From positions 1 through 27,449 of IMG/VR virus record IMGVR_UViG_3300020165_000128: 27,449 nucleotides of DNA. The stretch is one strand, 5' to 3'. Made by a program: the position numbers and the translations under genes. Below are positions 3,847-24,822 of this stretch, in pieces (position 1 is the first letter of the stretch; every line of letters begins with the position of its first letter). Source of the stretch: a virus. Below the pieces are notes generated by a model. The model ran no database searches, was not told the origin of the DNA, and worked only from the letters and a program-made list of their open reading frames with translations.

Positions 3847-5049
3847 TTGTTAGTCCAAACCTTAGACGATAAAAAACACTGTGTCGGTATATACCACGAC
3901 GGCAAACTAATCTATGACTGCGATGAGTTTGACTTCGACGCTGTATCTGCGACTTGGAACTACAACCCTGCTTTTTCACAAAAAGACGCTCTCATTGCCT
4001 CTCTATTCGTCGGCGGCAAATCCTTAAATGAAGTTTGCCCTGATTTTCTTAGACACCGCTGGGACACCATTAGCACCCGCCTGAACGCTTTCTATAAGTC
4101 ATTTTCCACTGCCAAAATAAGCTTGGATATCAATTGCTTCTTTGACCTTGTTCCTCAACGATTTTTGTTAGAATACTGCGAGGTCAAGAATAAAATTACA
4201 GATCACATTGTTAAGACACACACCAAGCCTGCGAACTATGACTTCCTCCGTTCTTTGGCGGAGTTGACTTATGACATCAGCCAACAAAAGCTAAATGTTG
4301 ATTACTCAGAGATCGCCCGCGACAGCCATCAACTAAAGGTGCGCAACTTCCTTAAGAAGTCCAAATACACCAAACCGCACATCAACTACAATATGTGGGG
4401 CACGAAGACTGGACGCATGACGACTTATAAGAGTTACTTTCCAATCCTCACACTTGACAGCGAATATCGCTCTATTATCAAACCGACAAACGATTACTTC
4501 GTGGAGCTTGATTACAATGCAGCGGAACTTCGTGTTCTGCTTGGGCTCAGCGGCAAGCAGCAACCCACTGAGGATCTCCACATCTGGAACTTGAATAACA
4601 TATATCGTGGAAACGGAACAAGAGATGAAGTAAAGAAGCGCATCTTCTCTTGGCTTTACAATCCTCAGTCAAAAGATTATGCACCACGCCGCTTTTATGA
4701 TCGCGAGGGCATCTTAAGAAAATATTGGAATGGGCAAGTTGTCATTACTCCGATGGATCGTGTAATCAGTGCGGACAAACACCACGCATTAAACTATTTA
4801 ATACAAAGCACAACAAGTGATGTCGTGCTTTCCAGAGCATTTAAAATTGCAGAGAAGCTAAAAAATAAAAATTCTTTTATTTCTTTCACACTTCATGATA
4901 GTATTGTTATAGACTTTGACGATACCGAGCGTGATTGTGTCCAAGAGTTGTTGGAGATATTTTCTCAAACTCCTTTTGGAAAGTTTCAGGTTAACTTAAG
5001 TGCGGGCAAGTCATATGGGGATATGAGGAGGATTGAATGGATACAGTAA
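3847..5049 (+). CDS. polA: Compact family A (Pol I-type) DNA polymerase, polymerase domain only
   Basis: This encodes a template-directed DNA polymerase of family A. The motifs are clear and in order: KTGR (residues 187-190, matching the TGRLSS region); motif A LDYNAAELRVLLGLSG with catalytic D222; motif B R259-x3-K263-x3-F267-x3-Y271, exactly the O-helix spacing; an IQSTTSD segment matching QGTAAD; and motif C LHDS with H350 and catalytic D351 (the usual Glu of HDE is Ser). At 400 residues it is much shorter than Klenow fragment: the distance from motif B to motif C is about 88 residues against about 124 in E. coli Pol I. No 3'-5' exonuclease motifs are visible in the first 170 residues, and the 5'-3' nuclease is a separate gene at 8724. 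The start is a TTG preceded by AAGAG; no in-frame ATG occurs before residue 183, so the TTG is favoured. The neighbouring gene overlaps it by 13 nt. Confidence 0.88.
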   Translation: MLVQTLDDKKHCVGIYHDGKLIYDCDEFDFDAVSATWNYNPAFSQKDALIASLFVGGKSLNEVCPDFLRHRWDTISTRLNAFYKSFSTAKISLDINCFFDLVPQRFLLEYCEVKNKITDHIVKTHTKPANYDFLRSLAELTYDISQQKLNVDYSEIARDSHQLKVRNFLKKSKYTKPHINYNMWGTKTGRMTTYKSYFPILTLDSEYRSIIKPTNDYFVELDYNAAELRVLLGLSGKQQPTEDLHIWNLNNIYRGNGTRDEVKKRIFSWLYNPQSKDYAPRRFYDREGILRKYWNGQVVITPMDRVISADKHHALNYLIQSTTSDVVLSRAFKIAEKLKNKNSFISFTLHDSIVIDFDDTERDCVQELLEIFSQTPFGKFQVNLSAGKSYGDMRRIEWIQ

Positions 5050-5873
5050 TCGGACTTGGAAAAGCTGGTTGTGCTATTGCAGACAAGTTTGCACAATATC
5101 CTCAGTATAAGACCTTTAAGATTGACTCCGAGGGTCTTGACCCTAAAAGCAAAAACTGCCATTTGTTAAAAAAACAAGACAGCCCTGAGAAGTACGAGAA
5201 AACCGTTCGCTCGATGAAGACATTCTTTGCCAAAACCACAGACAATATTCTATTTGTATTGTCTGGTTCTGGCATGATCTCCGGCGCTTCACTTCAAATT
5301 CTAAAGAACCTCCGAGGAAAGAAAGTTAATATTCTTTATATCAAGCCAGATATGGAATTCTTGGGACACATGAACATCCTCCAAGAGCGAGTAGTAAGAA
5401 ATGTTTTACAAGAGTATACCCGCTCCGGTGTGTTCAATCGTATTTTTCTTGTAGATAATAAGAAAGTAGAAGAAGTTCTGGGCGATGTTCCAATTATTGG
5501 CTACTATGATAGGCTAAATGAACTGATTGTCTCCACTATTCACATGGTTAATATTTACGATCACCAGAAAGCGATCCATGCGACCCCATTTGATAAGGCA
5601 GATACAACACGCATTTCAACATTTGGCATTGTAAATGTGGACGAGGGCAAAGAAAAATTGTTTTTTTCCCTTGACAACATCCGAGAGAAGTGTTATTATT
5701 ATGCTATCAACTCAAAAGCATTAGAGACAGACGGAAAACTTTTGCGAACACTAACTGACAATATTAATAAAAACATTGGTAAGGACGTTCGAGCAGGGTT
5801 TCAAGTTTACTCTACCTCTTATGAACAAAACTACGGGTACTTGGTGGCAAACACCGAGTTAACGAACAATTAA
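5037..5873 (+). CDS. Divergent tubulin/FtsZ-like GTPase
   Basis: This is probably a filament-forming GTPase of the tubulin/FtsZ fold. An N-terminal glycine loop (VIGLGKAGCA, residues 4-13) matches the first FtsZ nucleotide loop. FVLSGSGMISGAS (73-85) sits where FtsZ has GGGTGTG. It is followed by a beta strand ending in KPD (103-105), like the FtsZ 'TKPF' strand, then a helix, then FLVDNKKVEEVLG (137-149), like 'IPNDKLL', and a core helix. PFDKAD (184-189) could correspond to the T7 catalytic loop (FtsZ VDFAD). At 278 residues it is shorter than FtsZ or PhuZ and lacks a long C-terminal tail. The G-box is degenerate, so GTPase activity is not certain; a Rossmann-type dinucleotide protein is the alternative. 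The start lies inside the polymerase gene with a good GAGGAG site 6 nt upstream, so the two are translationally coupled. Confidence 0.6.
   Translation: MDTVIGLGKAGCAIADKFAQYPQYKTFKIDSEGLDPKSKNCHLLKKQDSPEKYEKTVRSMKTFFAKTTDNILFVLSGSGMISGASLQILKNLRGKKVNILYIKPDMEFLGHMNILQERVVRNVLQEYTRSGVFNRIFLVDNKKVEEVLGDVPIIGYYDRLNELIVSTIHMVNIYDHQKAIHATPFDKADTTRISTFGIVNVDEGKEKLFFSLDNIREKCYYYAINSKALETDGKLLRTLTDNINKNIGKDVRAGFQVYSTSYEQNYGYLVANTELTNN
5671..5699 (+). promoter_or_regulatory. Possible internal sigma70 promoter
   Basis: TTGACA at 5671-5676 is followed after 17 bp by TATTAT at 5694-5699. It lies within the tubulin-like gene and could serve the small membrane protein and SSB. The boxes also spell ordinary codons (Leu-Asp-Asn and Tyr-Tyr-Tyr), so chance is a real alternative. 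Confidence 0.25.
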
Positions 5874-5880
5874 GAATTAT

Positions 5881-6156
5881 ATGAAAACCACACTAAATTT
5901 TTTAAAAGACCACTGGAAAAGAATGACTACATTGTTTGCTCTTTCTCTAATTGGCACCTTTGCAGCAATGCAGGTTCATAAAAACGGAATTGAACTTGGA
6001 AAAAAGGTTGGGCGATGTGAAGTCACTTGCGCTCTTTTTATTGGAGACTTTATTGCACTCGATGATGACGGATGCCAATGTGAACTGGCAGCAGGATTTG
6101 TCGTCACAGTTCCAATAGATCCAGATTATTTTGAAAATTCTTTGACAGAAGAATAA
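5881..6156 (+). CDS. Small single-pass membrane protein with four cysteines
   Basis: This 91-residue protein is of unknown function. A basic N-terminal segment (MKTTLNFLKDHWKRM) is followed by one hydrophobic stretch at about residues 16-32 (TTLFALSLIGTFAAMQV), so it is either an N-terminally anchored inner-membrane protein with its C-terminus in the periplasm or a secreted protein with an uncleaved signal. The external part has two cysteine pairs, CEVTC (46-50) and CQC (65-67), suited to disulfide bonds, and an acidic tail. There is no lipobox. It begins 8 nt after the tubulin-like gene with a poor ribosome-binding site, and the SSB promoter overlaps its last codons. A lysis-related role such as a spanin subunit cannot be excluded, but no partner is adjacent. 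Confidence 0.6.
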   Translation: MKTTLNFLKDHWKRMTTLFALSLIGTFAAMQVHKNGIELGKKVGRCEVTCALFIGDFIALDDDGCQCELAAGFVVTVPIDPDYFENSLTEE

Positions 6157-6170
6157 AACTATGTTACAAT
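6142..6170 (+). promoter_or_regulatory. Sigma70-type promoter for the SSB gene
   Basis: A perfect -35 box TTGACA (6142-6147) is followed by a 17-bp spacer and TACAAT (6165-6170). A second -10-like TATAAT lies at 6172-6177. The -35 box overlaps the 3' end of the upstream membrane-protein gene. Transcription should start near 6177, just at the base of the leader hairpin. Confidence 0.75.
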
Positions 6171-6179
6171 CTATAATAG

Positions 6180-6208: not shown

Positions 6209-6243
6209 AGACCAACCAGTCACAACTACAAGGAGAAAAGACA

Positions 6244-7008: not shown

Positions 7009-7024
7009 TCCCCGCGCCCACAGG

Positions 7025-7062: not shown

Positions 7063-7071
7063 GGAGATTAA

Positions 7072-8196
7072 ATGAGAATGGCGAAAGCTAAAACTACAAA
7101 AGCAGGTAAGTTAAACTTATCTGATATGCGTGCCCTTATTAATAAAAGGGCTGGTCTGAATGTCGCTCACGACTTGACTGAACAAAACCCCACCGAGGTT
7201 AAAGAGTGGATTCCAACTGGCTCTCGCTGGTTGGACTCAATTATTTGTCGTGGTAAACTTTCTGGCATCCCCGTTGGTAAGGTTGTTGAGATCGCAGGTC
7301 TTGAAGCAACAGGAAAGTCTTATATGGCAGCCCAAGTTGCTGCGAACGCTCAAAAGATGGGAATGGATGTTATTTATTTTGACTCTGAGTCTGCGATTGA
7401 TCCGGCTTTCCTTGAGAAAGCGGGCTGCGACTTGAGCAGCCTCCTCTATGTTCAGGCAGCTTCTGTTGAATTTGTTTTGGAGACTATCGAGGATCTCTTG
7501 GCAAACAATGACAATCGTATGTTGTTTATCTGGGACTCTTTGGCTCTGACTCCAGCTATCTCGGATATTGAAGGAGATTTCAACCCTCAGTCCTCTATGG
7601 CTATGAAGGCTCGCATTCTTGCAAAGGGCATGTCTAAGTTGACTGTACCCATTGCTAACTCGCAGTCTACCTTCTTGGTTCTTAACCAGTTGAAGTCAAA
7701 CATCACTCGTTCGCCTTCTGAGGCTATGACGACCCCTTATGTCACACCAGGCGGAAAGGCTATGATTTATGCATACTCACTTCGCATCTGGCTGACTGGG
7801 CGAAAAGCTAAGGCATCTTTTGTCACTGATGATAAGGGCTTTCGTATCGGTTCAGAGGTTAAGGTAAAGTTGGAGAAATCTCGCTTTGGTACTCAAGGTC
7901 GGCAGTGTAACTTCCGAATCCTTTGGGGAGATGAGATTGGCATTCAGGATGATGAAAGCTTGTTTGATGCAATCGCTGGCTCATCCAATTTGGTTCGCAC
8001 AGGCGCCTGGTATACTCTCTTGGACTCCTCTGGGAATGCCCTGGGTGCGAAGTTCCAAGCAACGAAGTGGACTGACCGAATGGCAGAAGAAGAATTCCGG
8101 TCAAGGGTCCATGAGATTATGGACGAGGAAGTTATTTATAAGTTTGACAAGCGCGAAGGAAACGCAGCAGATTTTTATGAAGAAAATGATGAATAA
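7072..8196 (+). CDS. uvsX: UvsX/RecA-like recombinase
   Basis: This is an ATP-dependent strand-exchange protein that forms filaments on single-stranded DNA for recombination-dependent replication and repair. It has a Walker A motif GLEATGKS (residues 76-83), a VIYFDSESAID strand (about 99-109) matching the RecA region that carries the catalytic Glu, a Walker B-like LFIWDSLAL, and FLVLNQLKSNI with the terminal Gln-Leu/Lys region of the ATP switch and DNA-binding loop L2. The C-terminus is acidic (ADFYEENDE), as in RecA and UvsX. At 374 residues it is close to T4 UvsX (391). The start at 7072 has GGAG 5 nt upstream; a second ATG at 7078 is possible and would remove two residues. It follows the SSB gene across a hairpin and precedes a lipoprotein gene by 39 nt. 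Confidence 0.88.
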   Translation: MRMAKAKTTKAGKLNLSDMRALINKRAGLNVAHDLTEQNPTEVKEWIPTGSRWLDSIICRGKLSGIPVGKVVEIAGLEATGKSYMAAQVAANAQKMGMDVIYFDSESAIDPAFLEKAGCDLSSLLYVQAASVEFVLETIEDLLANNDNRMLFIWDSLALTPAISDIEGDFNPQSSMAMKARILAKGMSKLTVPIANSQSTFLVLNQLKSNITRSPSEAMTTPYVTPGGKAMIYAYSLRIWLTGRKAKASFVTDDKGFRIGSEVKVKLEKSRFGTQGRQCNFRILWGDEIGIQDDESLFDAIAGSSNLVRTGAWYTLLDSSGNALGAKFQATKWTDRMAEEEFRSRVHEIMDEEVIYKFDKREGNAADFYEENDE

Positions 8197-8235
8197 TAAA
8201 ACTAGTTATACGTCTATAGAACAGGAGTTAAAACA

Positions 8236-8630: not shown

Positions 8631-8717
8631 GCTTGAGTGGTGGAATTGGTAGACACAAGGGACTTAAAATCCCTCGCCAGTATTGGCATGCGGGTTCGAT
8701 TCCCGCCTCAAGCACCA
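8631..8717 (+). tRNA. tRNA-Leu, anticodon UAA
   Basis: The 87-nt cloverleaf is complete: acceptor GCTTGAG (8631-8637) pairs with CTCAAGC (8707-8713), followed by A and an encoded CCA (8715-8717). The anticodon stem AGGGA/TCCCT holds the loop CTTAAAA, giving anticodon UAA, which reads UUA leucine codons. The long variable arm (GCCA/TGGC) and a GCGGG-TTCGATT-CCCGC T arm are those of a class II leucine tRNA. It is likely carried to support phage codon use. Confidence 0.96.
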
Positions 8718-8723: not shown

Positions 8724-9686
8724 ATGAAACGACTATTAGTAATTGACGCTCTCAACTTGATGTTCCGAAACTACATCGTGAACCCAAGTTTATCTACAAA
8801 CGGACAACCCATTGGAGGGCTTAAAGGCTTCCTCCAGTCTCTCCAGAAACTTATCAGGGAAACAAAGCCTGACCAAGTTGTCATCTGTTGGGATGGTGAG
8901 GGTGGTAGCCAAAGACGAAAGTCACAAAACAAGGGCTATAAAGAAGGTCGTAAGCCTATTCGTCTGAACCGCGATATTCGCAACCTAACTGAAAACGAAG
9001 AGATTTCTAATAAGATCTGGCAACAGACACGCCTCGTTGAATATCTTAACGAACTGCCGATTGTCCAGTTGATGCTACCCGCTGTTGAAGCAGATGATAT
9101 TATTAGTGTCGTCGTACAGCATCCAAGTTTTGCTGGATGGCAAAAAGTTATTGTCTCATCAGACAAAGATTTCTTTCAGTTGTGTGACGGTGAAACCATT
9201 GTCTTTCGACCCATCCAGAAGCAAATCATCAACCAGACGGGGCTTGTGGAACAACATGGCATTCATCCAAAAAACTTTGCCCTTGCCAGAGCCATCGCAG
9301 GAGACAAGTCAGACAATCTTCCAGGCGTTGGAGGCGTTGGGCTCCCGACAATCTCAAAACGTTTTCCGTTCTTAGCTGAAGATGTCTCATATGACATTGA
9401 CACATTGATGAAATATTCCAAAGAACACGCAGGTAAAGTCAAGGCATACACGAATGTACTTGAAAAACGAGCAGTGGTAGAAGAGAACTACAGGCTCATG
9501 CAGCTTTACACACCCTCAGTTAGTGTACAGGGTAGACAGAAGATCAATTATGCACTTGGCAACTTTAAGCCAGAATTTGCCAAAACAAATGTAAAGGCAA
9601 TGATGATTGAAGATGGATTTGGTGTTGTAAACTTCGTCGATATGTATGCTTGGATGAATAAGATTGTAGCAGATTCCCGAATATAA
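8724..9686 (+). CDS. 5'-3' exonuclease / T4 RNase H-like flap nuclease
   Basis: This is a FEN-family nuclease that removes RNA primers and 5' flaps. Metal-binding acids appear in the family order: D8 (LLVIDALNLMFRN), D57 (VICWDGEGG with SQRRK after it), E122/D124/D125 (VEADDIIS), D147/D149 (SSDKDFFQL) and D194/D197 (AGDKSDNLPGVGGVG, the helix-hairpin-helix region). At 320 residues it is the size of T4 RNase H and of the N-terminal nuclease of Pol I, and it complements the exonuclease-less family A polymerase at 3847. An open frame runs back to 8637, but that part is tRNA, so the ATG at 8724 is the start. That start is 6 nt after the tRNA CCA and has no Shine-Dalgarno sequence. It is followed 14 nt later by the nucleotidyltransferase-like gene. 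Confidence 0.88.
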   Translation: MKRLLVIDALNLMFRNYIVNPSLSTNGQPIGGLKGFLQSLQKLIRETKPDQVVICWDGEGGSQRRKSQNKGYKEGRKPIRLNRDIRNLTENEEISNKIWQQTRLVEYLNELPIVQLMLPAVEADDIISVVVQHPSFAGWQKVIVSSDKDFFQLCDGETIVFRPIQKQIINQTGLVEQHGIHPKNFALARAIAGDKSDNLPGVGGVGLPTISKRFPFLAEDVSYDIDTLMKYSKEHAGKVKAYTNVLEKRAVVEENYRLMQLYTPSVSVQGRQKINYALGNFKPEFAKTNVKAMMIEDGFGVVNFVDMYAWMNKIVADSRI

Positions 9687-9700: not shown

Positions 9701-10555
9701 ATGAAACTATACAACAAATGGAGAGAAACTTTCGGAGAGTCAAATAAAACAAATTTGAACTCTGAAATTCTCGTTAAGGGCTTTAAAAATTTTATAAACG
9801 AAGACAACGATCCTGAGTCCGTGGATCTGTCAAGTTTTGAGTTTCACGATGAACTCAACCAAGACTTTTGGAATCAAGAGGACGATAGATTAGATCCCGA
9901 GATTCGTGCTAAACTAATGGCAATTGCTAATGATTTCTGGGACTCTCTTGAAGTCGGTGACACTGAGTATGATGATATTACTTTCACTGGCTCACTGGCT
10001 GCCCACAACTACTCTCAGTTTTCAGATGTAGACCTCCATATTCTTGTTGACTTTTCCAATGTCGATGACAAGGTTGATTTGGTGCGAGAATACTTTAACG
10101 CCATGAAGTCTATCTGGAATCGTCTTCACGATATTCTTATTAAGGGCTACGAAGTTGAGATTTATGTGCAAGATATTAATGATCCCCACGAAGCACAAGG
10201 TCTTTATTCAGTGCTTAATGATGACTGGATTAAAAAGCCTACCCTTGACAAGCAAGACTTTGACAAGGACAATATAAAGAAAAAAGCAGCCGGTCTTATG
10301 GATCAAATTGATCGCCTTCAGCCGCTTCTTGACGAGGGCAAGTACGAAGAGGCAGAAAAATACGCAGAAAAACTAAAAGCTAAAATCAGTAAAATGAGAA
10401 AAACAGGATTAGAAACAGTTGGTGCATACTCTGTTGAAAACCTCGCTTTTAAAGTGCTGAGAAGAAATGACTACCTCGGCAAGCTTTCTGATGCTAAACG
10501 AGAGGCTTACGATAAAATGCTTTCAATCAAAGAGCAGCAAAACACCAAGGAATAA
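9701..10555 (+). CDS. Nucleotidyltransferase-fold protein (Pol beta superfamily)
   Basis: The central region carries the nucleotidyltransferase signature: FTGSLAAHNYSQFSDVDLHI with Gly-Ser at 97-98 and metal-binding D109 and D111, and a likely third acid in YEVEIYV (E153). The target, which could be a nucleic acid, a tRNA end, a protein or a small molecule, cannot be deduced. The first 35 residues (MKLYNKWRETFGE and FKNFINED) form a separate tail before the domain, and residues about 195-245 are strongly charged helix, probably coiled coil. It starts 14 nt after the exonuclease with no clear ribosome-binding site and ends 2 nt before a virion-type gene. The fold assignment is confident; the biological role is unknown. 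Confidence 0.72.
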   Translation: MKLYNKWRETFGESNKTNLNSEILVKGFKNFINEDNDPESVDLSSFEFHDELNQDFWNQEDDRLDPEIRAKLMAIANDFWDSLEVGDTEYDDITFTGSLAAHNYSQFSDVDLHILVDFSNVDDKVDLVREYFNAMKSIWNRLHDILIKGYEVEIYVQDINDPHEAQGLYSVLNDDWIKKPTLDKQDFDKDNIKKKAAGLMDQIDRLQPLLDEGKYEEAEKYAEKLKAKISKMRKTGLETVGAYSVENLAFKVLRRNDYLGKLSDAKREAYDKMLSIKEQQNTKE

Positions 10556-10557: not shown

Positions 10558-10977
10558 ATGGCAACGTTTAATTCATATCAGTCGGGATTACACAACGTAG
10601 GCTCGTTCCAAGTTAGTTCGAGCCCTTACGCTACAGCCTCGCTTGATATCAACCCTGGACCTGACTTTGCCAGCAGCCCAGTTGTGTTGCAAATTGATTT
10701 TGATAGAGTGTCAAAATTTATTGTTATAAAAAACGAAGTCTCGGTTGATTTAGATGATGCCCCTCTGCGTGTAGGCTTTTCTGAAAATGGAGTAAAGGGC
10801 ACAAACTATATCGTACTTTTTAACGATGAAAACTTCACAGCAGATTATAAGGTCAGTCGTCTTTATTTGATGGCACACACAGCCGTGTCATCTTCAGCCT
10901 CTGTTATCGCAGGTATGACCGGCATTCACTCTAATCAATTAGAGCATAACTGGTCAGGCTCCTTGGGAGTAGGGTAA
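10558..10977 (+). CDS. Small beta-rich protein, probable virion component
   Basis: This 139-residue protein is not recognised. Its composition is Ser/Val/Asp-rich and the pattern of alternating hydrophobic residues suggests beta structure; there is no signal peptide, membrane segment or catalytic motif. It ends with the stop codon overlapping the start of the next gene (TAATG), so the two are translated together. The next proteins are fibre-like, so a tail-fibre or head-decoration role is inferred from context. AAGGA upstream of the ATG supports the start. Confidence 0.6.
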   Translation: MATFNSYQSGLHNVGSFQVSSSPYATASLDINPGPDFASSPVVLQIDFDRVSKFIVIKNEVSVDLDDAPLRVGFSENGVKGTNYIVLFNDENFTADYKVSRLYLMAHTAVSSSASVIAGMTGIHSNQLEHNWSGSLGVG

Positions 10978-11615
10978 TGGGTTTCGGTGGCAAGTTACCA
11001 AGAGGGTATCTAAGATCCTTGGAGAGAGATTTTCCACAAAGAGATGAATTTAATACTTACACGGCTAGTGCAGCGACCCAGTTCTCAACCAAAGTGGAGC
11101 TTAACACTTACACTGCCAGTGCCGCAACCAGTTTTACACCGAGAACTGACTTCAATACCTACACTGCCAGTTCCCCCGCAGCAGGCACAGGTGGCGGTAT
11201 CTTCTCTCAATCGGCTGGCGGTGAACAACTTGCAACCAGTAGTGTTGTTTTTAGTGGTAGTAATCCAAATTCGCTCATTCTTAATGTTGAGGGAATTTCT
11301 GAATTAAGTGGCGGTTTAATTCACAAGCGTTTTGTAAGAACCAGTAATTATACACTAACAACGACTGATTACCTTGTAGCAGCAGATACTAGTGCAGGTT
11401 CATTTACAATTTTACTCCCAGATGCCTCAACAGCAACCGAGGGTCAGACTTGGGTTTTTAAAGATGAGGGCGGTGTCGCCCCAGCAAACAATGTTATTAT
11501 TCGTCCTACAGTGGGTGGGCAAACAATTGATGGAAAGGCTGAGATTAGATTAGAATCATCTTATGCCGCAATCCACATGTACACAGATGGTGTGAGCAAA
11601 TATTTTATTTTCTAG
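10977..11615 (+). CDS. Short tail-fibre-like protein with three NTYTAS repeats
   Basis: The N-terminal part contains three copies of a repeat of about 17 residues, seen as EFNTYTASAATQF, ELNTYTASAATSF and DFNTYTASSPAAG (about residues 21-65), followed by a Gly-rich hinge. The last 95 residues form a beta-rich domain with LPDAS, a Gly-rich turn, IDGKAEIRLES and a C-terminal aromatic residue. The same pattern closes the 813-residue protein downstream, so the two share a C-terminal domain, probably for trimerisation or particle attachment. The start overlaps the previous stop codon. The fibre-like call rests on repeats, composition and this shared domain. Confidence 0.68.
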   Translation: MGFGGKLPRGYLRSLERDFPQRDEFNTYTASAATQFSTKVELNTYTASAATSFTPRTDFNTYTASSPAAGTGGGIFSQSAGGEQLATSSVVFSGSNPNSLILNVEGISELSGGLIHKRFVRTSNYTLTTTDYLVAADTSAGSFTILLPDASTATEGQTWVFKDEGGVAPANNVIIRPTVGGQTIDGKAEIRLESSYAAIHMYTDGVSKYFIF

Positions 11616-11692
11616 TCTTTAATTAAATTTAAAATATTTTGTAAATTGACGACAACCTCTCCTATATACGAGTGGATGGGGCTAACACATTT

Positions 11693-11739
11693 CGGATGCA
11701 CACTAGTGGTGCGTCTGCGTGTGGAAACCTGCGTCCACA
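11693..11739 (+). promoter_or_regulatory. Two tandem hairpins in the leader of the repeat-rich fibre gene
   Basis: In the 153-nt gap 11616-11768, a 9-bp stem with two G-U pairs (11693-11701 with 11709-11717) is followed by a 6-bp stem, TGTGGA (11720-11725) with TCCACA (11734-11739), 29 nt before the ATG. Neither has a U-run, so they are not typical terminators; a translation or mRNA-stability role is inferred. The flanking 11616-11645 is very AT-rich. A TATATA at 11663 could be a -10 box, but no properly spaced -35 was found. Confidence 0.5.
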
Positions 11740-11768
11740 TATTTTAAACTATAGGAGATAAACAAAAT

Positions 11769-14210: not shown

Positions 14211-14245
14211 ACCATACTCTTATTCAATTTTATTTGGATATTCCT

Positions 14246-14280
14246 GGGTGCCCCTCCTTGTGGGGGGCATCCTTTTTTTT
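14246..14280 (+). terminator. Strong intrinsic terminator after the fibre-like gene
   Basis: GGGTGCCCC (14246-14254) pairs with GGGGCATCC (14264-14272) with one G-U pair; two more inner pairs give an 11-bp stem with a 5-nt loop, followed by eight T. It isolates the 813-residue gene from the next gene. Confidence 0.93.
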
Positions 14281-14308
14281 GTAGACTATTTATGTTGGAG
14301 GGTTTTTG

Positions 14309-15061
14309 ATGGCTTATAAATTTTCAAGGGGTGGACGCGAGTTCGGAGACATTGAGTTCGAGGGAGATGCGGGCACAGGAATTGATTTTGAGGAAGATCA
14401 GGTTAGTTTGGAAACAGGAGGAACCCAGCGACTCCTTGTTAATAACTACGGAGCAACAATTACAGGCTCTCTTGAGATTACAGGTTCGGCACAATCGTTA
14501 CTCGTATTACACACCCGAGATGCTGATAATCTAAAAGAAATCGCTTTTTTTAAAGACGGCAGCGCCGCTGCTGCAATGCAGATTAATAGTGCAGAGCATT
14601 TTTTTATTGAAAACGAGAACTCAAAAGATATAATATTAAGAACCAACAATCAGAACACAATTAGAATTTACGGCTCCAGCCAAAGAGTGGGAATCAGTCA
14701 GCCGCATGGCTCAACAACAGCAAACGGGGCACTTGATGTCACAGGAGAAGTTATGATAACTGGCAGTCTCCACATTCAAGATAGAATAGTGCTAAAACAA
14801 GGCAGCGACCCATCAACATTAGATGATCATGCTCATGTTTATTCCAAAAACAATTTAGCAAACGAGGCTGAAGTGTTTGTTAGGGACGAGGCGGGCAATG
14901 TTACAAAAATCTCACCACATAACGAACAGGGCGAGTGGGAATATTTTTCAAAAAATGTTAAAACTGGTAAGGTGTTTCGTGTTAATATGGAAAAGATGAT
15001 TCGCAAACTTGAAGAACTTACTGGCGAATCGTTTATAGAAGAGTGGAACGAAGATAAATAA
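14309..15061 (+). CDS. Fibre-associated or virion structural protein (250 aa)
   Basis: This beta-rich protein begins MAYKFSRGG, echoing the MAYKFQHGQ start of the 813-residue fibre-like protein, which suggests a shared N-terminal attachment or assembly feature. The middle has Gly/Ser/Thr-rich segments such as ITGSLEITGSAQ and GALDVTGEVMITGSLHIQ, typical of fibre shafts. The last 45 residues are charged and helical (GEWEYFSKNVKTGK, then VNMEKMIRKLEELTGE), a pattern I associate with conserved structural proteins of marine T4-related phages. GGAGG 6 nt upstream selects the ATG at 14309 over the TTG at 14306. It stands alone between the preceding terminator and the helicase promoter. Confidence 0.65.
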   Translation: MAYKFSRGGREFGDIEFEGDAGTGIDFEEDQVSLETGGTQRLLVNNYGATITGSLEITGSAQSLLVLHTRDADNLKEIAFFKDGSAAAAMQINSAEHFFIENENSKDIILRTNNQNTIRIYGSSQRVGISQPHGSTTANGALDVTGEVMITGSLHIQDRIVLKQGSDPSTLDDHAHVYSKNNLANEAEVFVRDEAGNVTKISPHNEQGEWEYFSKNVKTGKVFRVNMEKMIRKLEELTGESFIEEWNEDK

Positions 15062-15127: not shown

Positions 15128-16492
15128 TTGAACTCGCAAGAGCATACTAATTTTAGCAAATACGGCAAATCTTTTCAAGAGGGTCTTGCCGCCCTCATTC
15201 TGCAAGATAGGGCTTTTTCAGACCAGATCCAAGAGGTGCTGGAGACGGATTATTTTGAACTAAAATATTTACAGGTATTCGTCGGCAAGATTTTTGATTA
15301 TAAAAAGGAATATAGTGTTCATCCAACTGCTAAGATTCTTTTGACGATTCTTCGTACTGGGTTAGAAGAAGAAACAGATGCGGTAAAGAAGCAGACCCGA
15401 GATTATTTTTCACGAATTTATAACACTGATGTAAGAGATGAAGACTTCATCAAAAATACGTCGCTTGACTTTTGTCGCAAGCAAACGCTAAAAGAGGCTA
15501 TGATTAAGTCCGTGGGTTTGCTGAAAAGTTCATCATATGATGAGGTTGCAAAAGTCATAACCGATGCTGTTAAACTCGGCAGTAATTCTGATTTTGGCTA
15601 TGATTATGTTGCAGATTTTGAAAAACGTTTCGAGATAAAAGCCCGTGATCCAGTCAGCACTGGGTGGGATGAGATTGATCAGCTTTGTCGAGGCGGTATT
15701 GGAAATGGTGAGCTTGGTGTTGTGATCGCGCCAACAGGTGCTGGTAAGTCCATGGTGCTTGTACATCTTGGAGCACAGGCACTCTTACAGGGAAAGACGG
15801 TTGTACATTACACGCTTGAGCTTCAAGACACCAGTATTGGTATTCGCTATGATAGCTGTATTACTGGCGTCTCCCTTTCCGAGATGCATTCTTTTAAAGA
15901 AATGATTTACGAAAAGGTACAGGAAGTACCTGGGCGCCTAATTATTAAAGAGTACCCAACAAAATCTGCCAGCACCCAGACAATTAAAAATCATCTGGAA
16001 AAACTTAAACAAAGAGATATAAAAGTTGACATGATTCTGGTAGACTATGGAGACTTGTTGAGACCTGTTACTGTTACGAGAGAAAAGAGGCACGACTTGG
16101 AATCTATTTATGAAGAATTGCGAGCAACAGCACAAGAAAATAAATGCCCAGTCTGGACTGCATCTCAAACTAATCGTTCAGGTCTAAACGCAGAAGTTGT
16201 AACCCTGGAGGCAATCTCCGAGGCATACAGCAAATGTTTTGTTGCTGACTTTATTTGTTCAGTATCCAGAACAATTGACGATAAGAACAATAATACAGGG
16301 CGGCTATTCGTTGCCAAGAACAGATTCGGTCCAGACGGGCTTGTTTATCCAGCCAAAATGGATCTCAGCAGAGTTAAGATTGATGTGCTACCTTCGACGG
16401 GCGAAACAATCGGTGAAATTCAAGTTAATGCCGCGAAACAGCAGTCAGAGAAATTAAAAGAAAGATATAAACAATTCAAGGATGGGAAATAA
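15128..16492 (+). CDS. DnaB-like replicative helicase (T4 gp41 type)
   Basis: This is a hexameric, ATP-driven helicase that unwinds DNA at the replication fork. The RecA-like motor domain occupies residues about 175-430: PVSTGWDEIDQLCRGG, then Walker A APTGAGKS (201-208), the H1a-type VVHYTLEL with its Glu, and Walker B MILVDYGDL (302-310). Further on come a WTASQTNRSG segment with the sensor Gln and a KNRFGPDG segment with a likely arginine finger. The N-terminal 160 residues are helical and less conserved, as in the partner-binding domain of DnaB/gp41. At 454 residues its length is normal for the family. The TTG start has AGGTG 6-8 nt upstream and follows a consensus promoter. It overlaps the RNR gene by 11 nt. 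No primase is seen in the window. Confidence 0.88.
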   Translation: MNSQEHTNFSKYGKSFQEGLAALILQDRAFSDQIQEVLETDYFELKYLQVFVGKIFDYKKEYSVHPTAKILLTILRTGLEEETDAVKKQTRDYFSRIYNTDVRDEDFIKNTSLDFCRKQTLKEAMIKSVGLLKSSSYDEVAKVITDAVKLGSNSDFGYDYVADFEKRFEIKARDPVSTGWDEIDQLCRGGIGNGELGVVIAPTGAGKSMVLVHLGAQALLQGKTVVHYTLELQDTSIGIRYDSCITGVSLSEMHSFKEMIYEKVQEVPGRLIIKEYPTKSASTQTIKNHLEKLKQRDIKVDMILVDYGDLLRPVTVTREKRHDLESIYEELRATAQENKCPVWTASQTNRSGLNAEVVTLEAISEAYSKCFVADFICSVSRTIDDKNNNTGRLFVAKNRFGPDGLVYPAKMDLSRVKIDVLPSTGETIGEIQVNAAKQQSEKLKERYKQFKDGK

Positions 16493-18893
16493 ATTGGGAA
16501 AATTAAAAGACTACTTCGGTGGTGATGAGTTAGCGTCAAATGTATGGCTAACAAAATATGCTTTGAAAGATCAGAGTGGAAAGGTTTTAGAGGAAACACC
16601 AGATGATATGCACCACCGCATCGCATCCGAGTTTGCCCGTATTGAGGCAAAGTTTGGCGGCAAAAGTGCTCTGTCTGAGGAGCAAATATTTGATTTAATT
16701 AAGAATTTTGAATATATTGTACCTCAAGGCTCACCTATGATGGGTATTGGAAACAACCATGTCAATGTCTCACTTTCCAATTGTGTGGTCGTTGCCTCCC
16801 CAGACGATAATATTTCTTCAATTCTTGATTCCGGTAAATCTCTTGCCAACCTATTTAAAAGACGCTGTGGCGTAGGGCTTGATCTTAGTGAGCTTCGTCC
16901 CGAAGGCACACCCGTTAATAATTCCGCAGGCACCACCACAGGTGCTTGGTCGTTTGCTGACTTATATTCATATGTTTGCCGTATGATTGGTCAGAACGGA
17001 CGCCGTGGCGCACTTATGATTTCGATGGATATTCGCCATCCTGATATTGAGAAGTTCGTGACCATGAAACACGATCTAACCAAAGTCACGGGTGCAAATG
17101 TGTCTGTTAAAATTAGCGATGACTTCATGGAGGCAGTACAGAACAATGGAACATTTACTCTTCGGTTTCCTGTTAACTCAGAAAACCCGAAATACACAAG
17201 ACAAGTGGAAGCCGCCGCTCTCTGGCAGCAAATCGTAGAATCAGCTACCAAGACAGCAGAGCCAGGACTTTTGATGTGGGGTAATATTGAAAAATATCTC
17301 CCTGCCGAAGCATATGCCGATGACGGCTTCAAGACGATTTGTACCAATCCTTGCGGAGAAATCCCGCTCTCGGCTTACGATTCGTGTCGATTGATTTCTG
17401 TGAATCTAAAAAGCTTCGTAGATCGAAAGTTCCAAAAAAATACGGAGTTCAATTTTTCCAGATTTTCGGAAACTGTTGCAAAGGCTATGAGACTATCTGA
17501 TGACTTAGTGGAACTTGAAATAGAAAAGCTTGATAATATTATTAAAGCCTGTGACACCTCCGATGAAGTCGAGCTTTGGGAGGAACTGAAGACTGCCTGT
17601 GTTAATGGAAGACGAACTGGTTTAGGCACACATGGCTTGGCAGATGCTTTGGCATGTCTTAACTTAGCTTATGACTCTAAAGAAGCGATGTCAGTGATTG
17701 ATAAAATCTATGAAACTTTTAAAATCGCCGCTTATACAGAGAGCGTCCGCTTATCCGAGGAGCGAGGTGCTTTTCCAGTATTTAATTGGGAAAAGGAGAA
17801 GAGCAATGCCTTTATCCAATCTCTCCCACCGGAACTGCAAGCACTCATTGCTCAGCATGGAAGACGGAATATCTCAATCTTGACCAATGCGCCAACCGGC
17901 TCTGTTTCTATTCTCTCTCAGACTTCATCTGGTATTGAGCCTGTTTTCCGAAACACTTATACTCGGCGCCGTAAGCTGTCTCACAACGAAACAGATATAC
18001 AAGCCGATTTCATTGATGATTTGGGTGATAAATGGACTGAATATGAAGTTTTTCACCATAATGTTCGGGATTATCTTGACGCTAATAACACCGACGAGAT
18101 TCCTGATTTTTTCACGGAATCCGACGCTATTGACTGGGAAAACCGAGTAAAAATTCAGGCAGCAATTCAGAAGCATATTGACCACTCAATTAGCTCAACA
18201 ATTAATCTTCCCAAGGGCACCAATCCAGAGGTTGTTTCTCGCCTTTACCAACTTGGCTGGAAACTTGGATTAAAGGGCATCACTGTTTATGTTGATGGTT
18301 CGCGTACCGGCGTCCTTGTCACAAACACCGAGGAAGAAAAAGAATCTTTCCCACAACACCAGGCTGTAAAACGCCCCTCTGAATTACCCTGTAGCATCCA
18401 CCACACAACTATTCAGGGAGAGAAGTGGATTATTTTAGTAGGCATGCTTGACGGCAAACCTTACGAAGTTATGGGGGGTCTATCAAACTTAATTGAGATC
18501 CCTACAAAGCATACTGAAGGGATTCTTGTAAAGCACCCTCGAAAAACAAAGAATTCTGTTTATGACTTGCGAGTTGGCAAGAATGGTGATACAATTGTTG
18601 TAAAGGATCTTGTCAAAGTCTTTGATAATCCAAACTACGCAGCCTTTACTCGCCTTATCTCACTTTCGCTACGACATGGAGCAGACATTCAATATGTTGT
18701 TGAACAAATGCAAAAAGACCGAGACAGCGACATGTTCTCGTTCGCCAAGTGTGTCGCGAGGGTTCTTAAAAACTACATCACCGATGGATCGGCAGCAAGC
18801 GACAAGATCTGCCCCGAGTGCGGCGCCGATGGGCTTATTTATGTTGAGGGTTGCTTAACTTGCCGCAATTGCGGCTATTCAAAATGTGGATGA
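16482..18893 (+). CDS. nrdJ: Class II (adenosylcobalamin-dependent) ribonucleotide reductase
   Basis: This enzyme reduces ribonucleotides to deoxyribonucleotides for phage DNA synthesis. The catalytic triad N289-C291-E293 lies in NPCGEIPL; the redox cysteines are C101 (SLSNCVV) and C302 (YDSCRL). Other family blocks are GRRTGLGTHGLADAL, NAPTGSVSILSQTSSGIEP and DHSISSTINLP. The C-terminus carries a zinc-ribbon-like CPECG and CRNCGYSKCG, the thioredoxin-interacting tail typical of NrdJ. There is no radical-generating small subunit gene nearby, which agrees with class II; cofactor must come from the host. At 803 residues it is full length. It overlaps the helicase gene by 11 nt, and AAGGATG provides little spacing for a ribosome-binding site, so coupling is likely. 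The neighbouring dUTPase serves the same pathway. Confidence 0.9.
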   Translation: MGNKLGKLKDYFGGDELASNVWLTKYALKDQSGKVLEETPDDMHHRIASEFARIEAKFGGKSALSEEQIFDLIKNFEYIVPQGSPMMGIGNNHVNVSLSNCVVVASPDDNISSILDSGKSLANLFKRRCGVGLDLSELRPEGTPVNNSAGTTTGAWSFADLYSYVCRMIGQNGRRGALMISMDIRHPDIEKFVTMKHDLTKVTGANVSVKISDDFMEAVQNNGTFTLRFPVNSENPKYTRQVEAAALWQQIVESATKTAEPGLLMWGNIEKYLPAEAYADDGFKTICTNPCGEIPLSAYDSCRLISVNLKSFVDRKFQKNTEFNFSRFSETVAKAMRLSDDLVELEIEKLDNIIKACDTSDEVELWEELKTACVNGRRTGLGTHGLADALACLNLAYDSKEAMSVIDKIYETFKIAAYTESVRLSEERGAFPVFNWEKEKSNAFIQSLPPELQALIAQHGRRNISILTNAPTGSVSILSQTSSGIEPVFRNTYTRRRKLSHNETDIQADFIDDLGDKWTEYEVFHHNVRDYLDANNTDEIPDFFTESDAIDWENRVKIQAAIQKHIDHSISSTINLPKGTNPEVVSRLYQLGWKLGLKGITVYVDGSRTGVLVTNTEEEKESFPQHQAVKRPSELPCSIHHTTIQGEKWIILVGMLDGKPYEVMGGLSNLIEIPTKHTEGILVKHPRKTKNSVYDLRVGKNGDTIVVKDLVKVFDNPNYAAFTRLISLSLRHGADIQYVVEQMQKDRDSDMFSFAKCVARVLKNYITDGSAASDKICPECGADGLIYVEGCLTCRNCGYSKCG

Positions 18894-18936
18894 TATGACA
18901 ATTCATCGTAATATGTACGACAAAAAAGGAAAAACT

Positions 18937-19221
18937 ATGCTACAGCCATTTAACAGGCACATTTTAATCACACCAGAATTTATTGAGAGGGAAAAGAAAA
19001 AAGAACAATCAGCAATTCTACTACCTGAAGACTATACAAAGGTAGAGGGCAAATACTGCACCGCCATTGTTCACAATACAGCCGAAGATTGCCGTTTCGA
19101 AAATCTATCAGTCGGAAGTCGCATCCTCGTTGATCGTGCCATGATTGAAGAAGTGGAGCACAATGGAGAAAAGCACCACCTCATCTTAGACAACTATGTA
19201 ATTGCACAAGTCACGGAGTAA
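18937..19221 (+). CDS. GroES/gp31-like co-chaperonin candidate
   Basis: This 94-residue protein is the size of GroES (97) and shows its layout: an N-terminal strand (LQPFNRHILITPE), a polar loop followed by SAILLPED (like GroES GGIVL), an internal strand after EGKYCTAIV, the LSVGSRILVDRAMIEEVE segment (like VGDIVIFND) and a final hydrophobic strand NYVIAQV (like DILAIVEA). T4 gp31 is a similar GroES substitute needed to fold the capsid protein with host GroEL. The match is by pattern, not by a unique motif, so other small beta-barrels are possible. The open frame begins at 18886, but AGGA 6 nt upstream favours the ATG at 18937. It follows RNR and precedes a 47-codon gene. Confidence 0.55.
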   Translation: MLQPFNRHILITPEFIEREKKKEQSAILLPEDYTKVEGKYCTAIVHNTAEDCRFENLSVGSRILVDRAMIEEVEHNGEKHHLILDNYVIAQVTE

Positions 19222-21372: not shown

Positions 21373-21390
21373 GAATTAGAGGAGGGTAAG

Positions 21391-24300
21391 ATGAACGACC
21401 GAGTAAAAAGTGAAATTCCATTTGTAGGGCTGCACGCACATAGCGTGGCAGGTTCGTTATTTGACGCACTTGGGTATCCCCCAGACCACATGGACTTTTG
21501 TTATGAAAATGGTGGTGATGCATTAGCATTGACCGATCACGGAAACGCCAATGGTCTTTCTCATCAAGTGCTCCATGCCAAAAAGATGAAAGAAGAGGGC
21601 AAGAACTTTAAGCCCATCTTCGGAACGGAAGCATATTTTATTCCGTCTATCTCTGATTGGCGCAAAGAGTATGAGAAAGCCCTTGAGGACAAGAAGCGTG
21701 CCAAAACTCTAGGTTCGGAGTTGAGCGGCGCCACTGTAGAAGACGAGAATTCCAGTAAGAAAGTCCAAGATGTGTTGCGCCGTCGTCGTCATCTTATCCT
21801 CCTCGCACAAAATCAAACAGGACTTCAGAATATCTTTAAGTTGATTTCTGAGAGCTACAAGAGCGAAAACTTCTATCGTTATCCTCGCATGGACTATGAT
21901 CTCCTTGCGAAGTATGGAGAGGGAGTTATCGCTGCTTCGGCTTGCCTCGGCGGCGTGTATTCTGGTAATTACTGGGAAAACCGCGAAGCTGGTGAAGAGG
22001 CAGTCCTTCAGGCTATGCGTGAAACAACTCGCAAGATGATGTCCATCTTTGGAGATCGTTGGTATGGCGAGTTGCAGTGGAATAATGTTCCAGAGCAGCA
22101 CATTATTAACAAGTTCATCATTCAGATGCACAAAGAATTTGGTATCGGTCTTGTTTCTACGGCTGATAGCCACTATCCAAGTAAAGATGCGTGGAAAGAC
22201 CGCGAACTTTATAAACGTCTTGGCTGGCTTGGTAAGGCTGCTCCATCTTACGAGAGCACCGAACTTCCGATTGGCGTTGACGAGATTGGGTATGAGCTTT
22301 ACCCGAAGAACGGCGACCAAATGTGGGAGTCTTATAAGAAGTATTCAGAAGAATGCGGCGTAGACTACGATGACGACATTGTTATGAAGTCCATCACCCA
22401 CACTCACGAAATCGCCCATCAACGAATCGACGACTTTTTACCCGATAACAAGGTTCGTCTTCCTGATTTTGTTGTTCCTGCTGGATATACTGCGACCCAA
22501 GCACTGGTTAATATGTCTCTCGAAGGCTTGCGCCAACAGGGGTTGCACAATAACAGGGAATATTCTGATCGCCTCCGTCGCGAGCTAAGTGTTATTGATG
22601 ATCGAGGTTTCTCAAAATATTTCTTAACAATGAAGGCAATTGCCGACCGAGCAAACGATTGCATGCTCACAGGTCCAGGTCGTGGTTCTGCCGCAGGCTC
22701 ACTTGTGGCTTATGCCCTTGGAATCACTCAGATTGACCCAATTAAGTATGGTCTTCTGTTCTCCCGCTTTCTTCGTTCTGATGCTACTGACTATCCAGAT
22801 ATTGACTACGATGTAGCAGCACCGATGGACCTAAAAGAGCGGTTGATTAAGGAGTGGGGCGACACTACAGTTGTTCCAATCTCTAACTGGAATACTCTTC
22901 AGTTGCGATCTCTTATTAAGGATATTTCCAAGTTTTACGGCATCCCGTTTAAGGAAGTGAACGAGGTCACAGGCAAGATGCTTTTGGAGGCAACACCAGC
23001 CGCTAAGAAGGCACACGGCATTAAAGCAGGTGTGTACACGCCCACGTTTGAGGAGACAAAAGAATACTCTCCAACCCTACAAGCGTTCTTGAACAAATAT
23101 ACCAATATTGCTAATCATATCGATATGTTATATGGTCAGGTGCGTTCTTGTTCCCGTCACGCAGGCGGTGTGGTGGTCGGAGAAAACCTTGATAATTGGA
23201 TGCCTTTGATCAACTCCAAAGGTGTCCGTCAGACGCCTTGGGCAGAGGGTCAAAATGTTCGCCACCTTGAGCCGATGGGTTTTATTAAGTTCGATATCCT
23301 TGGGCTTTCTACGCTTGCAATGCTTGATGGAGCAATCCGTCATGTTCTCAAGCGACATCACAACAATCCAGAGCCAACTTTTAACGATGTAAGGGATTAT
23401 TACAATAAGAATCTGCACCCAGACTCTATTAATTTGGAGAATCAGGAAGTTTACAGCAACATCTTTCACAAGGGCAAATGGGCTGGTATTTTCCAGTTTA
23501 CAGAGAAGGGCGCTCAGGGCTTCTGCCAGCGAGCAAAACCCACCAGCATTGTGGACATTTCTGCCATTACTTCCATCTTTCGCCCTGGTCCACTCTCTGC
23601 AAAGGTTGATGACCAATATGTGGAGGCAAAACAGCACCCACAATATATCAAGTACGACCATCCTCTCATTCAAGAGGTAACTGAGGAAACATACGGCTTT
23701 CTTATCTTTCAGGAGCAGATCGCTATCCTCGCCCATAAACTCGGCAAGGATCTGTCTTTGGACGAGGGTAACAAGCTCCGCAAGCTCCTTACTAAGAAGG
23801 GAACAGGCAAAGGGCACGAAGCCAAAATGAAGATTCACTCCAAGTTTATTACTGGATGTGTTGAAAAGGGCATTGGTCAAAATATCGCCCAAGGCATTTG
23901 GGATAAGTTTGAATATTTCTCAGGCTACGGCTTTAATAAGTCACACGCTGTTTCTTATTCTATGCTGTCTTATCAGTGCGCTTGGCTGGCTCATCACTAT
24001 CCCGCAGAGTGGATGGCAGCATTCTTGGACAAAGAGCCCGAGAGTAGAAAAGAGAAAGCAATTAATATTGCCAAAGGCTTTGGTTTCAATATTAAAAAGT
24101 TGGATGTGAATACTTCTGGTCGTGTTTGGGAAATCTCCGAAGATGGCAAGACACTCATTCAGCCTCTAACCTCTATCAAGGGACTTGGTGAGGCGGCTAT
24201 TCAGCAAATCTTAGGCAACCGCCCATTTAATAAAGTTGAGGACTTCATCTTCAATGAAAACATGGTTTACTCTAAGCTTAACAAGAAGGCACTTGATGTT

Positions 24301-24822
24301 CTTGTGCGCTCAGGGGCAATGAATGGGCTTGTAGATAACCGCTTTAGTGGGCTTAAGCACTTCTGGTCTGCCGTCGCTGTTGACCGACCTCGCAAACTAA
24401 AGAAGTTCGAAGAAAACATTGAGTTGTATCGTCCAGAAGGCGACTTCGAAGAGGAAGACATCATTCAATACACCGTTGAACTCACAGGTGTGTTTCCAAT
24501 GTCAGAAGTCATGAATCAAAGTATCATGGATAAGTTATATCAAAACATGATTCCTCCAATTGGTGAGTTTGATCCTGATTTGAAGGTGACTTGGTTTATC
24601 CCTCGCAAGATTGTCCCGAGGAAAACAAAGAACAATAAAGAATACTGGGTTGTTGAGGTTATCGACGACACCGGCACTACATCAAACATTAAGTGCTGGG
24701 GCGTGAACTCTAAGCTTGATATCCTCTATCTTAACCGCCCGTATATGGCGAAGCTTGACTATCACCCAACATGGGGTTTTAGCACGAGATCTTTACGACA
24801 TAATTTTAGATTATTGTCTTGA
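21391..24822 (+). CDS. dnaE: DNA polymerase III alpha subunit, DnaE-type family C polymerase with PHP domain
   Basis: This is probably the phage replicative polymerase. The PHP domain (about 1-270) shows all nine metal-ligand positions: H15 and H17 (HAHS), D25, H50 (TDHG), E80 (GTEAYF), H134, C185 (SACLGG), and D259 and H261 (STADSHYP). The polymerase core carries GPGRGSAAGS (428-437), catalytic D470 and D472 in PDIDYD (469-474), and a third acid D635 (IKFDILGL). Further on are KSHAVSYSMLSYQCAWLAHHYPAEWMAAFL-type family C sequence, a helix-hairpin-helix (TSIKGLGEAAIQQIL) and a C-terminal OB-fold (about 1065-1130). At 1143 residues it matches E. coli DnaE (1160). Residues about 88-130 form a charged insertion. 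GAGG 9 nt upstream supports the ATG. No DnaQ proofreading subunit is seen. Confidence 0.95.
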   Translation: MNDRVKSEIPFVGLHAHSVAGSLFDALGYPPDHMDFCYENGGDALALTDHGNANGLSHQVLHAKKMKEEGKNFKPIFGTEAYFIPSISDWRKEYEKALEDKKRAKTLGSELSGATVEDENSSKKVQDVLRRRRHLILLAQNQTGLQNIFKLISESYKSENFYRYPRMDYDLLAKYGEGVIAASACLGGVYSGNYWENREAGEEAVLQAMRETTRKMMSIFGDRWYGELQWNNVPEQHIINKFIIQMHKEFGIGLVSTADSHYPSKDAWKDRELYKRLGWLGKAAPSYESTELPIGVDEIGYELYPKNGDQMWESYKKYSEECGVDYDDDIVMKSITHTHEIAHQRIDDFLPDNKVRLPDFVVPAGYTATQALVNMSLEGLRQQGLHNNREYSDRLRRELSVIDDRGFSKYFLTMKAIADRANDCMLTGPGRGSAAGSLVAYALGITQIDPIKYGLLFSRFLRSDATDYPDIDYDVAAPMDLKERLIKEWGDTTVVPISNWNTLQLRSLIKDISKFYGIPFKEVNEVTGKMLLEATPAAKKAHGIKAGVYTPTFEETKEYSPTLQAFLNKYTNIANHIDMLYGQVRSCSRHAGGVVVGENLDNWMPLINSKGVRQTPWAEGQNVRHLEPMGFIKFDILGLSTLAMLDGAIRHVLKRHHNNPEPTFNDVRDYYNKNLHPDSINLENQEVYSNIFHKGKWAGIFQFTEKGAQGFCQRAKPTSIVDISAITSIFRPGPLSAKVDDQYVEAKQHPQYIKYDHPLIQEVTEETYGFLIFQEQIAILAHKLGKDLSLDEGNKLRKLLTKKGTGKGHEAKMKIHSKFITGCVEKGIGQNIAQGIWDKFEYFSGYGFNKSHAVSYSMLSYQCAWLAHHYPAEWMAAFLDKEPESRKEKAINIAKGFGFNIKKLDVNTSGRVWEISEDGKTLIQPLTSIKGLGEAAIQQILGNRPFNKVEDFIFNENMVYSKLNKKALDVLVRSGAMNGLVDNRFSGLKHFWSAVAVDRPRKLKKFEENIELYRPEGDFEEEDIIQYTVELTGVFPMSEVMNQSIMDKLYQNMIPPIGEFDPDLKVTWFIPRKIVPRKTKNNKEYWVVEVIDDTGTTSNIKCWGVNSKLDILYLNRPYMAKLDYHPTWGFSTRSLRHNFRLLS

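What the first reader, a model, noticed from the sequence alone, without database searches (positions are those of the whole stretch)
3847..24822. Two DNA polymerases of different families in one phage region
Both a family A polymerase (3847-5049, motifs A, B and C intact) and a full-length DnaE-type family C polymerase (21391-24822, all three catalytic Asp) are present. Phages normally encode one replicative polymerase. The family A enzyme is stripped to 400 residues, without exonuclease, and the 5'-3' nuclease is a separate gene. It may have been demoted to gap filling or primer replacement while DnaE took over the fork, or DnaE was acquired later.
Basis: partly seen in the sequence, partly recalled or inferred. 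Interest (0 to 1): 0.75.

Follow-up and report, generated by a model that had tools for sequence, protein, structure and literature searches.

The report
Phage with two DNA polymerases
A widespread group of uncultured ocean viruses of bacteria always carries two different DNA-copying enzymes, a complete bacterial-type one and a small cut-down one; this pairing was first described in 2024, so the window is a new example of a known oddity, although its large spread and a tubulin-like gene beside the small enzyme are worth following up.

Summary
The window, an uncultured viral fragment, holds a 400-aa family A polymerase (3847-5049) and a 1143-aa DnaE (21391-24822), both with catalytic residues intact. 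It is not an assembly accident: all 33 records examined that carry both genes (the window and 32 relatives) have them on one strand, in the same order, 11-20 kb apart, including large 115-205 kb records; no record long enough to show both lacks one. Both genes are under purifying selection and diverge in parallel.

The pairing is already described. The small enzyme is divPolA1 (PMC11348598, 2024), a divergent PolA found beside a 'regular' polymerase of family A, B or C. Homology to the divPolA1 of Flavobacterium phage immuto is supported, and the downstream order (SSB, UvsX, 5'-3' exonuclease, DnaB, ribonucleotide reductase) is immuto's. Because immuto pairs divPolA1 with a full-length PolA, arrival of DnaE did not strip it. 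Most likely DnaE is the fork enzyme, and divPolA1 plus the Pol I-like 5' nuclease do gap filling, primer replacement or recombination-linked synthesis; roles are inferred.

Noticed: the gene overlapping divPolA1 (5037-5873) has a confident tubulin/FtsZ fold and is conserved across the clade.

The parts
3847..5049 (+). divPolA1-type family A DNA polymerase, 400 aa, TTG start; shrunken 3'-5' exonuclease and thumb regions, short fingers
5037..5873 (+). 278-aa tubulin/FtsZ-superfamily fold protein, overlapping the end of divPolA1 by 13 bases; conserved neighbour across the clade, no homologue found in phage immuto
6244..7008 (+). gp32-like single-strand DNA-binding protein
   Evidence: Pfam gp32 5.3e-11; PHROG 1192; immuto SSB homologue
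7072..8196 (+). UvsX/RecA recombinase
   Evidence: PHROG 97 1.8e-55
8724..9686 (+). 5'-3' exonuclease / flap nuclease like the N-terminal domain of Pol I (ORF listed from 8637; first 29 codons overlap tRNA-Leu)
   Evidence: immuto homologue 5e-46
15128..16492 (+). DnaB-like replicative helicase
   Evidence: PHROG 19 6e-71
16482..18893 (+). ribonucleotide reductase large subunit
   Evidence: PHROG 84 5e-116; Pfam Ribonuc_red_lgC 2e-96
18886..19221 (+). GroES-like co-chaperonin (weak), typical neighbour of the regular polymerase in divPolA1 phages
   Evidence: PHROG 3188 E 0.0032; NCBIfam 0.0034
21391..24822 (+). DnaE-type DNA polymerase III alpha, 1143 aa, all catalytic Asp and Taq-like PHP metal ligands present, C-terminal segment that looks like an OB fold by eye
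25161..25619 (+). dUTPase
   Evidence: PHROG 135 1.8e-33

Best explanation
This is a fragment of a T4-morphology phage genome (large relatives 115-205 kb) with a two-polymerase replication module. DnaE is most likely the fork enzyme: it has a complete polymerase core and a PHP domain with all metal ligands, which in some bacteria is a 3'-5' proofreading nuclease, and it works with the phage DnaB helicase and a DnaG primase encoded elsewhere in the genome, perhaps on the host's beta clamp. The small family A enzyme, divPolA1, is probably an active but distributive polymerase without proofreading. It is encoded with SSB, UvsX and a 5'-3' nuclease that resembles the N-terminal domain of Pol I. 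Together, divPolA1 and that nuclease look like a DNA polymerase I split into two genes, used to replace RNA primers, fill gaps and extend recombination intermediates. Shown: both genes, their residues, their conservation and co-inheritance. Inferred: activities, division of labour, clamp use.
For: Catalytic residues of both kept across the clade. dN/dS low for both where it could be estimated: PolA 0.06-0.17, DnaE 0.03-0.10. Pair in 33/33 records, same strand and order, gap 11.3-20.0 kb; every record with only one ends before the other is expected. Distance matrices correlate (r 0.86, 0 of 2000 permutations as high), with PolA diverging 1.7 times more than DnaE. PHP ligands H15, H17, D49, H50, E80, H134, C185, D259, H261 present, several of which E. 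coli has lost. divPolA1 model pLDDT 91, best match Bst Pol I large fragment Z 25.1; 177 residues before the palm against about 333 in Klenow, and 40 against 74 after the O-helix. The 5' nuclease matches Pol I residues 1-243 at 2.4e-38, while divPolA1 matches Pol I's C-terminal end. DnaG homologue in three large relatives; no family B polymerase.
Against: No biochemical or expression data. No bacterial-type clamp was found in 10 large relatives, the T4-type clamp search had no working control, and the E. coli clamp-binding motif is not conserved in this DnaE. divPolA1 sits in the replication cassette proper, while the neighbourhood of the regular polymerase is mixed, which led the authors of PMC11348598 to link divPolA1 itself to replication. 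Domain-level loss of thumb and exonuclease was judged from lengths and sequence alignment, which are unreliable in the N-terminal half.
Confidence: 0.6

Rival explanations
1. divPolA1 is the core replicative polymerase or an essential part of the fork, and the exchangeable 'regular' polymerase (DnaE here) does repair, lagging-strand or late synthesis.
For: divPolA1 is the constant element, in a fixed order with SSB, recombinase, nuclease and helicase in both immuto and the window clade, while the regular polymerase may be A, B or C.
Against: Shortened N-terminal region and fingers, no intact proofreading domain, faster divergence than DnaE; the immuto copy has lost counterparts of E710, R754 and H881; DnaE keeps every feature expected of a replicase.
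Confidence: 0.2
2. divPolA1 serves recombination-dependent replication: it extends UvsX-made D-loops or repairs breaks, as polymerase theta (also family A) does in eukaryotes, rather than maturing Okazaki fragments.
For: Encoded with the UvsX recombinase and gp32-like SSB; Foldseek matches include polymerases nu and theta, although Pol I from bacteria ranks equally well.
Against: The Pol I-like 5' nuclease in the same cassette points to primer or flap processing; nothing here separates the two roles.
Confidence: 0.15
3. divPolA1 has drifted to a non-polymerase or RNA-polymerase-like role.
For: Motif C reads HDS instead of HDE in most of the clade; the immuto copy is more eroded; the related divPolA2 has been suggested as a possible RNA polymerase.
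Against: The HDS motif also occurs in the ordinary polymerase of bajarodcaudo virus 5; E710 and Y766, typical of DNA polymerases, are kept. A DnaG primase exists in relatives, so no primer-maker is missing.
Confidence: 0.05

Closest known systems
divPolA1 of Flavobacterium phage vB_FspM_immuto and related phages, 14 in all (PMC11348598, Virol J 2024)
   Same: Homologous divergent PolA, extra to a regular polymerase; same order PolA - SSB - RecA - 5'-3' exonuclease - DnaB - ribonucleotide reductase; T4-like gp20, gp23 and sheath homologues in the window clade's large genomes; GroES/GroEL and nucleotide genes near the regular polymerase.
   Different: Window clade keeps E710, R754 and H881 counterparts that immuto has lost; regular polymerase is DnaE, in immuto a full-length PolA; an extra tubulin-fold gene lies directly after divPolA1.
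divPolA2 of barbaviruses (PMC11348598)
   Same: A second, exonuclease-less divergent PolA beside another polymerase (PolB).
   Different: 80-85 kb genomes, variable gene context, N-terminal domain unrelated to known ones, PolB partner (as published; not compared here).
Jumbo phage group 2.2 with PolB plus a split minimal PolIII alpha (PMC7824862)
   Same: Two polymerases of different families in one phage.
   Different: Family B plus a reduced, split family C enzyme, whereas here family C is full length and family A is reduced.
Bacterial DNA polymerase I
   Same: Palm and O-helix residues; 5' nuclease resembles its N-terminal domain.
   Different: Polymerase and nuclease are separate genes; 3'-5' exonuclease and thumb regions strongly shortened.

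Membership tests
divPolA1 | Homologous to immuto divPolA1 rather than to an ordinary phage PolA | tested here: met
   phmmer 2.1e-13; hhalign probability 97.7, E 2e-12 over 276 columns, against 53.7 and 1.3e-4 over 100 columns for immuto's own regular PolA; tree groups them at 99/98, with a long-branch warning
divPolA1 | Encoded in addition to a regular family A, B or C polymerase | tested here: met
   DnaE in the window and in every record long enough
divPolA1 | Main palm catalytic residues conserved | tested here: met
divPolA1 | Thumb truncated | tested here: inconclusive
   About 156 fewer residues before the palm than Klenow, shared by exonuclease and thumb; no superposed coordinates at hand
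divPolA1 | 3'-5' exonuclease inactivated, catalytic Asp replaced | tested here: inconclusive
   Exonuclease region about 65 residues against 194; E357, D424 and D501 positions changed, a D aligned with D355, but the alignment is weak there
divPolA1 | Conserved replication genes downstream | tested here: met
   Same order as immuto, with a 5-kb insertion of structural-like genes before the helicase
divPolA1 | Regular polymerase near GroES/GroEL and nucleotide genes | tested here: met
   GroES-like 18886-19221, reductase, dUTPase; GroEL about 8-10 kb beyond DnaE in relatives. The GroES match is weak
divPolA1 | Genome of 155-190 kb | tested here: inconclusive
   Window is a 27-kb fragment; large relatives run from 115 to 205 kb, completeness not estimated
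DnaE-type DNA polymerase III alpha | PHP, Pol beta-like palm with three Asp, fingers, HhH | tested here: met
   NCBIfam TIGR00594 superfamily 597.9 bits over cut-off 434
Tubulin/FtsZ superfamily (5037-5873) | Tubulin fold | tested here: met
   Model pLDDT 93; CetZ Z 24.6, rmsd 3.0, 256 aligned
Tubulin/FtsZ superfamily (5037-5873) | Glycine-rich GTP-binding loop and catalytic T7 loop | tested here: inconclusive
   Conserved GLGxAGC start and G(S/G)GxISGA loop; no clear NxDxxD T7 loop seen by eye; Pfam Tubulin only 0.06 for one relative

The most novel reading that the evidence does not exclude
The divPolA1 cassette and the tubulin-fold protein that overlaps it form one functional unit: a phage replication apparatus in which a cut-down family A polymerase works with a tubulin-like protein (for example to position or partition replicating DNA) while a DnaE runs the fork, a plan unlike either T4 or nucleus-forming phages.
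Probability: 0.15. Interest if true: 0.7.

Novelty: new member of a known kind. Interest (0 to 1): 0.38.

Why it matters
The pairing was reported in 14 phages; here it is a fixed trait of a large uncultured, apparently mostly marine clade (hundreds of IMG/VR stretches match each gene), so it is not an occasional acquisition. It gives an intact, well-conserved form of divPolA1 for biochemistry, better than the eroded immuto copy, and an ortholog set that makes the 'split Pol I' idea testable.

Tried and rejected
Chimeric assembly: rejected, 33 records with the same arrangement. Decay of one enzyme: rejected by intact residues and purifying selection; apparent stops in some relatives are terminal or lie upstream of the start. 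A missing primase that divPolA1 might replace: rejected, a DnaG homologue is present in three large relatives. A third polymerase: no family B match in 11 records. Separate DnaQ-type proofreader: RNase_T family in only 2 of 10 large relatives. T4-type clamp search: nothing, but the control genomes gave nothing either, so uninformative. Host from a WOR-3 genome bin (CP070664.1, 89% divPolA1): rejected; the stretch has 100-base N gaps and DnaE is split between positions 3 kb and 461 kb of the 'chromosome', so viral contigs were scaffolded into a bin. Published divPolA1 records LR796625 and MK892584 are not held. Kazlauskas et al. 2016 on viral replication is not held. Local hhalign in the Python box gave no output; the compare tool was used instead. 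Supplementary tables of PMC11348598 could not be read.

Full report
What is there. The window is a 27,449-bp linear IMG/VR viral record. It carries a 400-aa family A polymerase at 3847-5049 and a 1143-aa DnaE at 21391-24822, both on the + strand. Between and after them lie a tubulin-fold protein, gp32-like SSB, UvsX, a tRNA-Leu, a 5'-3' nuclease, a block of repeat-rich structural-like genes, DnaB, ribonucleotide reductase, a GroES-like protein and, after DnaE, dUTPase and a methyltransferase-like gene.

Are the two genes intact? Aligned to E. coli Pol I, T7 gp5 and phage polymerases, the small enzyme keeps the counterparts of R668, D705, E710, R754, K758, F762, Y766, N845, Q849, H881 and D882; E883 is Ser, as in the ordinary polymerase of bajarodcaudo virus 5. 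DnaE keeps the three catalytic Asp (470, 472, 635) in all 25 clade members aligned, and PHP ligands that E. coli lacks, such as H15, H50 and H261; Cys 185, also a ligand position in the Thermus enzyme, was seen in the window. One relative, G001, has Asn at the D49 position. Estimates of dN/dS against the close relatives where dS was usable are 0.06-0.17 (family A) and 0.03-0.10 (DnaE).

Is the pair an accident? No. Relatives of the small enzyme (41-100% identity) and of DnaE (58-99%) were fetched from viral contigs and whole records searched. In 33 of 33 records with both genes (the window included) they lie on one strand in the order PolA to DnaE, 11.3 to 20.0 kb apart. In every record that shows only one gene, the contig ends before, or about where, the other would be expected: DnaE-only records have at most 11.1 kb upstream, and PolA-only records at most about 11.5 kb downstream. 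One PolA-only entry (G044) was typed with the full contig length; its real downstream stretch is about 9.5 kb (L045 coordinates). Evolutionary distances of the two proteins correlate (r 0.86; 0 of 2000 permutations as high), although part of this is shared descent; the small enzyme diverges about 1.7 times more.

What is the small enzyme? The most significant named phage hit covering most of it is Flavobacterium phage immuto. PMC11348598 describes this immuto protein as divPolA1: a PolA present in addition to a regular polymerase of family A, B or C in 14 phages, with palm residues kept, thumb truncated and exonuclease inactivated, followed by conserved replication genes. The window protein matches immuto divPolA1 (phmmer 2.1e-13; hhalign 97.7%) far better than immuto's regular PolA (53.7% over 100 columns), and a tree joins the two at 99/98 with a long-branch warning. 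Immuto's order divPolA1, two genes, SSB, recombinase, 5'-3' exonuclease, DnaB, ribonucleotide reductase is that of the window, apart from an insertion between exonuclease and helicase. TerL, gp20, gp23, sheath, GroEL and DnaG homologues are shared by three large relatives. The published group already includes members with a family C partner, so the window is a new member of a known kind.

Structure. The AlphaFold model (pLDDT 91.3) matches Bst Pol I large fragment (4ez6, Z 25.1, rmsd 4.0, 357 aligned). Only 177 residues precede the palm against about 333 in the Klenow fragment, and 40 against 74 follow the O-helix. Exonuclease and thumb are therefore strongly reduced; which residues were lost could not be settled without superposed coordinates.

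How it probably works. The 5' nuclease is closest to the N-terminal domain of Pol I (PRK05755 residues 1-243, 2.4e-38), and divPolA1 matches the C-terminal end of the same family. The simplest reading is a Pol I split into two genes, beside a DnaE that copies the fork and may proofread with its PHP domain (the PHP activity is established for some bacterial DnaE enzymes from general knowledge, not tested here). Recombination-linked synthesis with UvsX is a close rival. No clamp was identified: the bacterial clamp family gave no match in 10 large relatives, and the T4-type search was uninformative.

History. Because immuto has divPolA1 together with a full-length PolA, the shrinkage was not caused by the arrival of DnaE. 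Swapping of the regular polymerase under a constant divPolA1, as published, fits better than demotion of the family A enzyme.

Beyond the finding. The gene after divPolA1 (5037-5873) has no significant family match in the window protein, but its model (pLDDT 93) is a tubulin/FtsZ/CetZ fold (CetZ Z 24.6; best viral match annotated FtsZ, TM 0.80). A tblastn match lies shortly after divPolA1 in nearly all fetched loci, and no homologue was found in immuto. PMC11348598 mentions neither FtsZ nor tubulin in its main text.

Noticed in passing
5037-5873 (+): 278-aa protein overlapping the end of divPolA1 with a confident tubulin/FtsZ/CetZ fold, conserved as divPolA1's neighbour across the clade, without a clear catalytic T7 loop.
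   Followed up: partly
L250 (CP070664.1, WOR-3 genome bin): A public 'chromosome' holds this virus's genes in pieces separated by 100-base N gaps, with DnaE split about 457 kb apart: viral contigs scaffolded into a genome bin.
   Followed up: yes
10558-15061 (+): A block of structural-like genes, including an 813-aa protein with repeats (11769-14210), sits inside the replication cassette between the 5' nuclease and DnaB; in relatives G001 and G029 these two genes are adjacent.
   Followed up: partly
8631-8717 (+): tRNA-Leu (taa) directly before the 5' nuclease gene; the longest ORF reads through it.
   Followed up: partly
9701-10555 (+): 284-aa protein with weak nucleotidyltransferase (Pol beta-like) similarity and a strong match to PHROG 36119 of unknown function.
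   Followed up: no
26066-27082 (+): Methyltransferase-like protein (NPPF motif) with matches to PHROG DNA methyltransferases.
   Followed up: no
3251, 5671, 6142, 8594 (+): Four sigma-70-like sites with 11 of 12 matches (TTGACA, 17-base spacer), two of them shortly before SSB and before the tRNA/nuclease pair.
   Followed up: no
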